Origin: Anaeromassilibacillus sp. An172
Lineage (GTDB): Bacteria; Bacillota; Clostridia; Oscillospirales; Acutalibacteraceae
DNA: 64,000 bases
Direction of reading: 5' to 3'
NCBI RefSeq assembly: GCF_002160515.1
Contig: NZ_NFKS01000005.1
Coordinates: 1-64,000 of the forward strand
The position numbers and the translations under genes are program-made. The notes below the pieces were generated by a model. The model saw only the letters and a program-made list of their open reading frames with translations. It made no database searches and was not told the DNA's origin. Positions 51,085-53,870 of this stretch are shown here, piece by piece (position 1 is the first letter of the stretch; the number at the start of each line of letters is the position of its first letter).

Positions 51085-51957
51085 TCACATATTCTCAGAA
51101 AGCTCAAGTGTTATTCTGCCAAGCTTTGCCCCTCTGAACTCATCCAAAACCATTGATGCGGCACGCTCTGTGTCTGCTTCTCCTCCGGATATAAGCATTC
51201 CTCTTTTTCTTGCCACAACCTCCAGCAGCTCATAGCCCTGCATATTTTTGTAATCAACCTCTGCAAGCTTCAGTCTTTCAACAAACTGAGGTGTGCTTTT
51301 CACTGAAAGAAACTCCAAAAGACGGGAAGCAAGCTGCTCTGTATCCACAATTTCATCCTTAACAGAGCCCATAAACGCAAGGTGTTCTCCAACTACCTTA
51401 TCGTCAAATTTTGGCCACAAAACTCCCGGGGTGTCGAGAAGTTCAAAGCCCTTTGCTACTGTAAACCACTGATTACCTCTTGTAACGCCCGGTCTGTCTT
51501 CTACCTTAGCTCTGTTTTGCTTTGCAATTCTGTTTATAAATGAAGATTTTCCAACATTCGGAACTCCAACAACCATAACTCTTATGCTTCTGTTTACCAT
51601 TCCTTTATTTTTCCATGCGGCAATTCTTTCTGCAAGAACCTCTTTAACTGCCGGTATAAACTTGTTAAGTCCCTTTCCGCTTTTACAGTCAACAGGAATA
51701 GCCACTATTTTATTGGCTTTAAAATATTCAATCCATCTTGCAGTTGCATTGGGGTCAGCCATATCACACTTATTTAAAAGCACAACACGTGGTTTTGAGC
51801 CGACGATTTCAGCCAAATCCGGATTTCTGCTGCTTACAGGTATTCTTGCGTCGATAATCTCTGCAACTGCGTCAACCAGCTTCAGAGATGACTGTATTTT
51901 TCTTTTGGTTTTGGTCATATGACCCGGAAACCATTGTATATTTTGAATTTCGCTCAT
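51085..51957 (-). CDS. rbgA: Ribosome biogenesis GTPase YlqF/RbgA
   Basis: A 290-residue circularly permuted GTPase required for a late step of 50S assembly. In order, LNKCDMAD (G4, about residue 57) precedes VVGVPNVGKSSFIN (G1, about 133), RPGVTRGNQWF and LLDTPGVLWPK (G3). The N-terminus (IQWFPGHMTKTKRKI) is diagnostic. A C-terminal helical ANTAR-like domain follows. It heads the rbgA-rnhB-yraN unit and is separated from lepB by a terminator. Confidence 0.96.
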   Translation of the reverse strand: MSEIQNIQWFPGHMTKTKRKIQSSLKLVDAVAEIIDARIPVSSRNPDLAEIVGSKPRVVLLNKCDMADPNATARWIEYFKANKIVAIPVDCKSGKGLNKFIPAVKEVLAERIAAWKNKGMVNRSIRVMVVGVPNVGKSSFINRIAKQNRAKVEDRPGVTRGNQWFTVAKGFELLDTPGVLWPKFDDKVVGEHLAFMGSVKDEIVDTEQLASRLLEFLSVKSTPQFVERLKLAEVDYKNMQGYELLEVVARKRGMLISGGEADTERAASMVLDEFRGAKLGRITLELSENM

Positions 51958-52037: not shown

Positions 52038-52670
52038 TTAACCTATAACTGAAATTCTGTCAAATGGATAAACTAAAAACTGAGCTTTACCGATGATGTC
52101 GCTTTCATGTACAAGGCCGACAGCCTGGTGTCTACTGTCAACAGAAGTTTCTCTGTTGTCGCCCATAACAAAAACGTAACCGTCCGGAATTGTGGAAGGC
52201 ACGTCCCACTCAATTCCTGTTGTTGTTTCGCCCTTTACATAAGGCTCGTCTATTATTTTACCATCTACCAAAACTCTGTTTTTATCTTCCTCGATAGAAA
52301 TACTCTGACCGCCCACGGCAATTACCCTGGCAATCAAAGCTGTACTTTCTCCGGATTCGTTGTCGGCATTTATAACAACAACATCTCCCTGCTGTGGCGT
52401 ATACAAGAAATTTGTGAGGATAATGGTGTCATTTTCAGCCAAAGTATCCTCCATAGAATCGCCCACTACAGTGACCGGACGGAAAAAGAATACAAGCAGA
52501 ACCACGATTAAAATAACACAGATAACCAAACAGCGTATCCATCCAAACAAACCGCTTACGAAACCTCTTTTGTGAAGCACAACGGTTTCCATAGCATCAT
52601 CGTTGTTTGCAGTACCCATATAGCTATGTTGTGTATAATCAAAATTATCATCGTATTTGTATCTGCCCAT
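52038..52670 (-). CDS. lepB: Signal peptidase I homologue lacking the catalytic lysine
   Basis: A 210-residue S26 family protein with a single membrane helix (about 46-64). The catalytic Ser is present (VVGDSMEDTL, Ser72), as are the conserved QGDVVVI box and the C-terminal GYVFVMGDNRETSVDSR box. At the position of the general-base Lys (KRVIG in other enzymes) the codon GCC encodes Ala114 (LIARVIAVGG). Sequence on both sides aligns without gaps. The N-terminal 45-residue cytoplasmic extension is Asp/Tyr-rich. It has its own promoter. A full-residue copy lies just upstream, so this one may be inactive or work differently. Its activity is an open question. Confidence 0.9.
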   Translation of the reverse strand: MGRYKYDDNFDYTQHSYMGTANNDDAMETVVLHKRGFVSGLFGWIRCLVICVILIVVLLVFFFRPVTVVGDSMEDTLAENDTIILTNFLYTPQQGDVVVINADNESGESTALIARVIAVGGQSISIEEDKNRVLVDGKIIDEPYVKGETTTGIEWDVPSTIPDGYVFVMGDNRETSVDSRHQAVGLVHESDIIGKAQFLVYPFDRISVIG

Positions 52671-52697: not shown

Positions 52698-52725
52698 CTC
52701 TTATCTATTATAAAACAGATAAGAG
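52698..52725 (-). promoter_or_regulatory. Inverted repeat over the lepB promoter
   Basis: CTCTTATCT (52698-52706) and AGATAAGAG (52717-52725) form a perfect 9-base pair flanking the -10 box. It can act as an operator on DNA or, in transcripts arriving from the upstream lepB, as a hairpin; the latter would have a weak T-run. Confidence 0.5.
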
Positions 52726-52735
52726 TCTGTTACAA
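52707..52735 (-). promoter_or_regulatory. Promoter of the first lepB gene
   Basis: TTGTAA (52730-52735) and TATAAT (52707-52712) on the minus strand have a 17-base spacer. The transcript would start near 52700 and its leader includes AGGAGG. Confidence 0.72.
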
Positions 52736-52750
52736 TAGCTTTTAGATTTT

Positions 52751-53329
52751 TTACTCAATAAATCCAAATCTGTCAAAAGGAAATACCACAAAAACGGCTT
52801 TTCCAACGATATCATCAACATTTACAAGACCTATATCCTTATATCTGCTGTCCATGGATATATATCTGTTATCACCCATAACAAAAACATATCCTTCCGG
52901 AATTACCTCAGGGATTTCTGCTGTTCCCTCAATAGTTTCACTGGAAATATAAGGTTCATCAAGAACCTTTCCGTCAACAATAACCTGCTGATTTTCAAAA
53001 TCAATTTCCAAGGTTTGACCTTCAGTAGCAATAACTCTCTTAACTATGGGCTTTGAATAACCATCTTCGGATTTACCCACAACAATAACATCGCCGTCTT
53101 TTGGCTGATATCCCATCTTGGTTACAATGATTTTATCTCCGCTTTCCAAGGTGTGCTGCATAGAGCGTCCGTCAACAATAACCATTGTAAAAACAAATGT
53201 AATTATCAGTATCAAAATAGACGCAGAAATTAAAACAGAACGCAAAATATCGTACACTCCGGCAACTCCGGAATTATCTAATGGTTCTATTGTTGAGTAA
53301 ATCTCGTCATTTTTTTTACTTTTTTTCAT
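52751..53329 (-). CDS. lepB: Signal peptidase I
   Basis: Cleaves signal peptides from exported proteins at the outer face of the membrane. The 192-residue enzyme has one membrane helix (about 31-50), the catalytic Ser56 in VDGRSMQHTL, the general-base Lys97 in PIVKRVIATEGQ, and the GYVFVMGDNRYISMDSR box. ATG at 53329 has a closer ribosome site than one three codons earlier. It lies between rplS and the second lepB; paired lepB genes after rplS are common in Clostridia. Confidence 0.94.
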   Translation of the reverse strand: MKKSKKNDEIYSTIEPLDNSGVAGVYDILRSVLISASILILIITFVFTMVIVDGRSMQHTLESGDKIIVTKMGYQPKDGDVIVVGKSEDGYSKPIVKRVIATEGQTLEIDFENQQVIVDGKVLDEPYISSETIEGTAEIPEVIPEGYVFVMGDNRYISMDSRYKDIGLVNVDDIVGKAVFVVFPFDRFGFIE

Positions 53330-53403: not shown

Positions 53404-53751
53404 TTACTTACGGATTTCTTCCTTAACCTTAGCAGCCTTACCAACTCTGTCACGAAGATAGTACAGCTTGCTTCTTCTAACTTTACCGTGTCTAACAACC
53501 TGAATGTCCTTTACGTTTGGTGAATGTACAGGGAATACTCTCTCTACACCAACACCGTAAGAAACACGACGAACAGTAAATGTTTCAGCAACACCGCTGC
53601 CCTTTCTTGCAATAACAGTGCCTTCAAACATCTGAATTCTTTCTCTTTCGCCTTCACGGATATTAACTGAAATCTTTACAGTATCACCGATTGAAAACTC
53701 AGGGATTTCACTTTTTACAGAACTAGCTGCAATTGTCTTTAATGCGTCCAT
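53404..53751 (-). CDS. rplS: 50S ribosomal protein L19
   Basis: A 115-residue protein at the 30S-50S interface. It has the family motifs [28 protein letters not shown], the [18 protein letters not shown] region and the C-terminal [21 protein letters not shown]. The start ATG at 53751 is six bases after AGGAGG and gives the standard length; two earlier in-frame ATGs (53757 and 53778) lie on or before that site. It has a strong promoter and a structured leader. Confidence 0.97.
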
Positions 53752-53870
53752 AAACATCCTCCTAATATTTTCAGACATTCGTACCCCTTTGGGCAGAGGA
53801 CTGTCCGCTTCAAAATGACGGCTTTCGCCGTTATTTGAACCCCATCACAAAACGTGACGGTTTCAAACGC
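53752..53870 (-). ncRNA. Structured 5' leader of rplS
   Basis: About 118 bases between the promoter and the L19 start can fold. A tight hairpin ACGGC-GAAA-GCCGT with a GNRA-type loop lies inside a TTCAAAT/ATTTTGAA pairing. A second imperfect stem (GAAACCGTCAC with GTGATGGGGTTC) precedes it, and a GGAC/GTCC element follows. Such leaders can mediate autoregulation by ribosomal proteins, and an L19 leader family is known in Firmicutes. Whether this matches it could not be tested. Confidence 0.45.

What the first reader, a model, noticed from the sequence alone, without database searches (positions are those of the whole stretch)
52038..52670. Signal peptidase I with alanine at the catalytic lysine
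Signal peptidases I use a Ser-Lys dyad (SipW-type use His in place of Lys). This protein keeps Ser72 and the flanking boxes, but the codon at the Lys position is GCC (Ala114, LIARVIAVGG), while the adjacent paralogue has Lys97 (PIVKRVIATEGQ). It may be a pseudoenzyme, a partner of the active copy, or use another base. Intact reading frame, own promoter and conserved boxes argue against simple decay.
Basis: partly seen in the sequence, partly recalled or inferred. Interest (0 to 1): 0.65.

Follow-up and report, generated by a model that had tools for sequence, protein, structure and literature searches.

The report
Lysine-less signal peptidase paralogue under selection
Next to a normal signal peptidase gene, this bacterial genome carries a second copy that has lost only its catalytic lysine (now alanine) yet is kept intact in two species, so it is most likely a non-cutting copy that still binds secretion signals, a variant of an already known kind of inactive protease relative.

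Summary
The ORF at 52038-52670 (-) encodes a 210-aa type I signal peptidase homologue with Ser72 and, in place of the catalytic lysine, Ala114 (codon GCC); the neighbour at 52751-53329 keeps Ser56/Lys97. A sequencing error is excluded: the only other species held for the genus has the same tandem pair and also Ala (GCG). Of 319 distinct homologous ORFs read from 247 loci, 297 have Ser+Lys; Ser+Ala occurs only in this genus. The Ala copy keeps 25 of 26 positions near-invariant in 257 Lys-type rows, losing only the Lys, and evolves at least as slowly as the Lys copy (pN/pS 0.139 against 0.201). A Ser+Glu copy in another genus shows what decay looks like (14 of 26 kept, pN/pS 0.54). No new Lys was found. 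The model has the signal-peptidase fold, closest to S. pyogenes SipA and E. coli LepB. Best reading: a pseudoenzyme (or nearly inactive enzyme) retained for binding signal peptides or for partnering the active copy. This resembles known inactive homologues (SipA, SpsA) with a milder lesion. Function is inferred, not shown.

The parts
52038..52670 (-). Ala-type signal peptidase I paralogue (P0001, 210 aa): tail of 37 residues, one predicted membrane helix (38-61), S26 domain
   Evidence: TIGR02227 134 bits; AlphaFold2, mean pLDDT 87.5; PF10502 126 bits
52455..52457 (-). codon TCT, Ser72 (nucleophile position, box B)
52329..52331 (-). codon GCC, Ala114, in the column of the catalytic lysine (box D)
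52751..53329 (-). Lys-type signal peptidase I (P0002, 192 aa; Ser56, Lys97), the only other PF10502 match found in the genome
52698..52725 (-). hairpin between the two genes; of 12 stem pairs compared with the second species, 2 are changed on both sides and 1 on one side, all still paired
52707..52735 (-). promoter-like TTGTAA-17-TATAAT in front of the Ala copy, overlapping the hairpin; TTGCAA-17-TATAAT in the second species
53404..53778 (-). rplS (L19), upstream neighbour; name by recognition of the sequence, not by a family search
   Evidence: 99% identical in second species
51085..51957 (-). YlqF/RbgA-type GTPase gene, downstream neighbour; name by recognition, not by a family search
   Evidence: 93% identical neighbour in L033

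Best explanation
The gene encodes a membrane-anchored type I signal peptidase paralogue that has lost only the general base of the Ser-Lys dyad. It is most likely unable, or barely able, to cut, but still folds, sits at the outer membrane face and binds signal peptides or similar extended peptides in its groove. It is kept for that binding: as a partner, competitor or chaperone of preproteins next to the active Lys copy encoded upstream, in the way the inactive homologue SipA serves surface-protein assembly in S. pyogenes. Shown: sequence, conservation, selection, predicted fold. Inferred: loss of activity, peptide binding, biological role.
For: Ala conserved in both species of the genus although synonymous sites of the gene are near saturation (pS 0.73; GCC against GCG). 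Purifying selection: pN/pS 0.139 for the Ala copy, 0.201 for the Lys copy; catalytic domain pN 0.065 against 0.077. 25 of 26 near-invariant positions kept, including Ser72, G170, S176, D178, R180. Predicted fold: SipA Z 19.0 at 2.0 A over 134 residues, LepB Z 17.9, SpsB Z 17.0. The Lys copy is beside it in 2 of 2 genomes, and no further PF10502 or TIGR02228 gene was found in the own genome, so the Lys copy presumably does the cutting. SipA lacks Ser and Lys, keeps the peptide groove, has no detectable peptidase activity and is needed for pilus polymerisation (PMC4049620, passages and part 1 of 2 of the Discussion).
Against: S176 and G170, equivalents of LepB Ser278 and Gly272 whose role is to hold or make room for the lysine, are retained although SipA has lost both; a pure binding protein would not need them, which fits a still working or only recently disabled active site. 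Nothing ties the gene to a pilus or a substrate: its near neighbours look like housekeeping genes. Peptide binding was not tested here, and in the SipA paper direct binding was sought and not detected.
Confidence: 0.6

Rival explanations
1. Still an active protease: Ser72 is activated by something other than an in-place lysine, for example a water held by S176, H188 or a glutamate, a lysine given by the Lys copy in a heterodimer, or a small amine filling the empty pocket.
For: The catalytic surround is kept, including the lysine-supporting S176 and G170, over a genus-level divergence. H188 is conserved in both Ala copies and rare (0.4%) in Lys-type rows; E127 and E128 are likewise peculiar.
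Against: No Lys is peculiar to the Ala copies. By recalled literature, LepB and SipS lysine mutants are inactive. H188 aligns with the Asp of GLIDEDQIVGK in SpsB, a segment that I recall as away from the active site; I could not measure it because model coordinates are not readable here.
Confidence: 0.12
2. A young pseudogene in the making: the copy lost its lysine in the common ancestor and has simply not yet decayed.
For: Only two species are known to carry it; the stem branch of the Ala copies is long (0.9 changes per column). Tandem copies do decay elsewhere in the family: L130 has Glu at the Lys position and 12 of 26 key positions lost.
Against: pN/pS 0.139 across near-saturated synonymous sites, lower than for the Lys neighbour (0.201); the decaying Glu copy shows 0.542 against its orthologue.
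Confidence: 0.12
3. The protein acts mainly as a structural or regulatory subunit of the active Lys copy (heterodimer), not through its own peptide groove.
For: Adjacent genes, together in 2 of 2 genomes.
Against: Groove and active-site residues would then be free to change, and they do not. A hairpin and a promoter-like site between the genes suggest separate control. I recall no established heterodimer of type I signal peptidases; this was not searched for.
Confidence: 0.14
4. Sequencing or assembly error at codon 114.
For: None.
Against: Independent genome of a second species has Ala by a different codon.
Confidence: 0.01

Closest known systems
Streptococcus pyogenes SipA (PDB 4n31, 4k8w; PMC4049620)
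   Same: Type I signal peptidase fold with an N-terminal anchor, lysine position lost, best fold match of the model; signal peptides are presumed to be cut by another, housekeeping peptidase.
   Different: SipA has Asp48 for Ser and Gly85 for Lys, and has also changed the Gly272 and Ser278 equivalents; the Ala copy keeps all of these except Lys. SipA lies in pilus clusters, this gene between a signal peptidase gene and a YlqF-type gene.
Staphylococcus aureus SpsA
   Same: Inactive homologue in a cell with an active SpsB (PMC12445088, passages; that the genes are adjacent is recalled).
   Different: SpsA lacks two conserved catalytic residues; here only one is lost.
Active type I signal peptidases (LepB, SpsB, SipS; TIGR02227)
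   Same: Sequence family, predicted fold, Ser nucleophile, GDNR-S-DSR box.
   Different: No lysine general base.
SipW / ER-type signal peptidases (TIGR02228; Ser-His)
   Same: Known precedent for a base other than Lys (recalled).
   Different: Position is Ala, not His; P0001 scores 21.1 bits against a cut-off of 51.85.

Membership tests
Type I signal peptidase family S26 by homology (TIGR02227, PF10502) | Score above the curated cut-off over the whole domain | tested here: met
   TIGR02227 134.2 bits against 47; PF10502 125.9 against 22.9
Type I signal peptidase family S26 by homology (TIGR02227, PF10502) | Signal peptidase fold | tested here: met
   AlphaFold2 model, mean pLDDT 87.5; Z 16.5-19.0 to SipA 4n31, LepB, SpsB
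Active Ser-Lys type I signal peptidase | Serine nucleophile in box B | tested here: met
   Ser72, both species
Active Ser-Lys type I signal peptidase | Lysine general base in box D | tested here: not met
   Ala114, both species
Active Ser-Lys type I signal peptidase | Box E G-D-N-R-x-x-S-x-D-S-R | tested here: met
   GDNRETSVDSR in both species
Active Ser-Lys type I signal peptidase | Cleaves preproteins | not testable with these tools
   needs an assay
SipA-like pilus assembly factor | Both Ser and Lys replaced | tested here: not met
   Ser72 kept; SipA has Asp48/Gly85
SipA-like pilus assembly factor | Encoded in a pilus cluster with a class B sortase | tested here: not met
   Near neighbours are rplS-, ylqF- and rnhB-like genes (names by recognition); the genome's 6 sortase matches lie on contigs other than C45. 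Their class, and pilins anywhere, were not examined
Ser-His (SipW/ER-type) signal peptidase | Histidine in place of the lysine | tested here: not met
   Ala114; TIGR02228 21.1 bits, cut-off 51.85

The most novel reading that the evidence does not exclude
A naturally lysine-free signal peptidase that still works: the intact Ser72/S176/oxyanion site is switched on conditionally by a base supplied from outside the chain (a lysine of the neighbouring active copy, a substrate residue, or a small amine filling the empty lysine pocket), making it a conditional peptidase for a few substrates.
Probability: 0.07. Interest if true: 0.75.

Novelty: new variant of a known kind. Interest (0 to 1): 0.36.

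Why it matters
The known inactive signal peptidase homologues that I could check (SipA, SpsA) have lost two or more active-site residues, so they do not tell which part of the active site serves binding and which serves chemistry. A natural copy that lacks only the lysine and is otherwise held constant by selection separates the two, and gives a simple one-residue test of what a non-cutting signal peptidase is for. Against that, inactive paralogues of this family are already known, and this one is so far seen in two species only.

Tried and rejected
Sequencing error: rejected by the second species.

A different lysine in register: rejected by alignment; no Lys between K34 and K130, and the four extracytoplasmic Lys are ordinary.

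A wide Ala clade: not found. In the MAFFT alignment two degenerate homologues (L045, L072) also fell as Ser/Ala; in the profile alignment they read Ser/gap, and they lack the surrounding motifs, so I do not count them.

Recent duplication in the genus versus older paralogy: undecided. A tree in which the Ala and Lys copies of the genus are sisters is not rejected (p-AU 0.75; the free search had missed it), although the quick tree placed the Ala copies elsewhere. One change of state at the Lys column suffices on that tree.

Measuring the Ser72 surroundings in the models: not possible, no coordinate files are in the box. The Lys-copy model (mean pLDDT 91.3) therefore served only to show that it too folds well.

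In one search the rluD and lspA rows are spurious short matches (no counterpart lies in L033) and were set aside.

Pilus link: no locus evidence.

Literature: searches for Lys-less or pseudo signal peptidases led to SipA and SpsA and to no Lys-only case in the listings seen; a search for S. epidermidis Sip1-Sip3, which I recalled as a possible Lys-less case, returned nothing, so that case stays a recollection and could reduce the novelty. Papers: PMC4049620 passages and Discussion part 1 of 2; PMC12445088, PMC13104630, PMC12984324 and PMC11266668 passages only; the rest listings only.

Full report
WHAT IS THERE. The minus strand carries rplS, a signal peptidase gene (52751-53329, P0002), a second signal peptidase gene (52038-52670, P0001), and a YlqF/RbgA-type gene, in that order (the names of the two outer genes are by recognition). 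P0001 has a 37-residue tail, one predicted membrane helix (38-61) and an S26 domain. It has Ser72 and, at the box D position, Ala114 coded GCC in ...STALIARVIAVGGQ..., where P0002 has ...KPIVKRVIATEGQ... with Lys97. These are the only two PF10502 matches in a genome of 98.9% estimated completeness, and no SipW/archaeal-type gene was found at E 0.001.

IS IT AN ERROR OR DECAY? The one other species held for the genus (L004 lies within L033) has the same pair in the same order, with Ser72 TCT and Ala114 GCG. Between the two species the Ala copy is 84% identical, pS 0.731, pN 0.102; the Lys copy 82%, pS 0.581, pN 0.115. In the catalytic domain pN is 0.065 for the Ala copy and 0.077 for the Lys copy. 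Counted over the open frames from stop to stop, pN/pS is 0.139 and 0.201. Synonymous sites of the Ala copy are close to saturation, so absolute ratios are rough; the nonsynonymous comparison between neighbours is the safer statement. The gene is under purifying selection about as strong as, or stronger than, that on its Lys neighbour; genes nearby such as ylqF and rnhB are more constrained than both in pN (0.043, 0.046).

HOW UNUSUAL IS IT? From 247 loci I read 319 distinct ORFs that match a profile of this family (E up to 1e-6, at least 100 aa): 297 have Ser and Lys, 2 Ser and Ala (this genus), 1 Ser and Glu (L130), 1 Thr and Lys (L226), and 18 are low-scoring (56 bits or less) degenerate homologues. 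The loci are mostly best matches within the same family plus 81 genomes drawn across the phylum, so this is not an even sample of bacteria. In an earlier alignment of 259 distinct ORFs (256 Lys, 2 Ala, 1 Glu) plus P0001 and P0002, 26 positions are at least 93% constant in the 257 Lys-type rows (P0002 counted twice); both Ala copies keep 25 of them and lose only the lysine. The Ser+Glu copy of L130 keeps 14 of 26, and against its Lys-type same-genus copy in L010 shows pN/pS 0.542, while the first copies of the same two genomes show 0.229; another pair of Lys-type second copies (L138, L140) shows 0.250. That is what a decaying tandem copy looks like, and the Ala copy does not look like it.

ANOTHER BASE? 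The extracytoplasmic lysines conserved in both Ala copies are K130, K138, K146 and K195; a Lys at the same place is found in 14, 23, 42 and 68 of the 70 other rows of alignment A1. None is peculiar to the Ala copies. Among positions shared by the two Ala copies but under 5% in Lys-type rows, the residues of the outer domain that could take a proton are H188, E127 and E128; T82 (usually Arg or Lys) and L199 are further oddities. H188 aligns with the Asp of GLIDEDQIVGK in SpsB, before the last strand, a place that I recall as far from the LepB active site; I could not measure it. So an alternative base is neither supported nor strictly excluded.

STRUCTURE. The AlphaFold2 model of P0001 (72-row alignment, mean pLDDT 87.5) aligns best with SipA (Z 19.0, 2.0 A, 134 residues), then LepB (17.9, 2.0 A, 143) and SpsB (17.0, 1.9 A, 129). 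The model has strands at 64-67, just before the Ser72 loop, and 109-118, which holds Ala114. In SpsB the substrate pairs with T31-K33 and D74-V76, the stretches just before the catalytic S36 and K77 (PMC11266668, passages), so the groove-forming parts are predicted to be present.

MECHANISM. In SpsB the lysine takes the proton from the serine and gives one to the leaving group, and also serves deacylation. Without it, and with no substitute in view, catalysis should be lost or very weak (inference; lysine mutants of LepB and SipS are inactive by recalled literature). What stays is the anchor, the groove and the serine site. The best-supported reading is a non-cutting paralogue that binds signal peptides or other extended segments at the membrane, as proposed for SipA, whose groove is conserved although its dyad is gone (PMC4049620, passages and Discussion part 1); that paper sought direct peptide binding and did not detect it. 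The retained S176 and G170 are the point that fits this least well, since their LepB counterparts serve the lysine and SipA has lost both.

CONTROL REGION. Between the two genes both species have a promoter-like pair of hexamers with 17-base spacing and, over the same bases, a hairpin (-17.1 and -20.8 kcal/mol; z -5.1 and -5.7), listed as terminator-like in the window. Of the 12 stem pairs compared, 2 differ on both sides and 1 on one side, all still paired. In the transcript of the upstream Lys copy this could be a weak terminator or 3' end, with the Ala copy started from its own promoter; two species are too few to be sure.

HISTORY. One change of state explains Lys to Ala. Whether the Ala copy comes from a duplication inside the genus or from an older second copy is open: the quick tree put it near second copies of some other genomes, but holding the two copies of the genus together is not rejected and even scored better.

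VERDICT. A real, conserved, apparently genus-restricted signal peptidase paralogue that lacks only its catalytic lysine; most likely a pseudoenzyme kept for binding. It is a variant of a known kind (SipA, SpsA), with an unusually mild lesion.

Noticed in passing
L042:2770-3336, L045:2509-3264, L055:2474-3202, L056:2622-3212, L060:2726-3328, L063:1243-1875, L064:2781-3407, L078:620-1282, L086:2703-3320, L087:2652-3233, L094:2702-3394; also L058, L072, L082, L088, L089, L090, L100: In 18 loci (11 of them titled uncultured Ruminococcus) a strongly degenerate signal-peptidase-like gene without the SM, Lys-Arg and GDNR signatures lies just before one to three ordinary signal peptidase genes (L100 too short to judge). 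Six were scanned in Pfam and six in NCBIfam, five of them in both: none reaches the S26 or signal peptidase cut-off, the best being 22.3 against 22.9 bits. It may be a conserved pseudo-peptidase family of its own and more interesting than the finding given.
   Followed up: partly
A decaying copy, used as a control.
   Followed up: yes
L226:50-580 (-): Signal peptidase homologue with Thr at the serine position (DGSTMRPT) and Lys kept: a possible threonine nucleophile.
   Followed up: no
window 52698-52725 (-): Hairpin with TATAAT in its loop and inner stem, conserved with compensating changes in the second species, between the two signal peptidase genes.
   Followed up: partly
G000 C10, C16, C12, C1, C61 (L248-L253): Six sortase-family matches in the same genome, none on the window's contig.
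   Followed up: no
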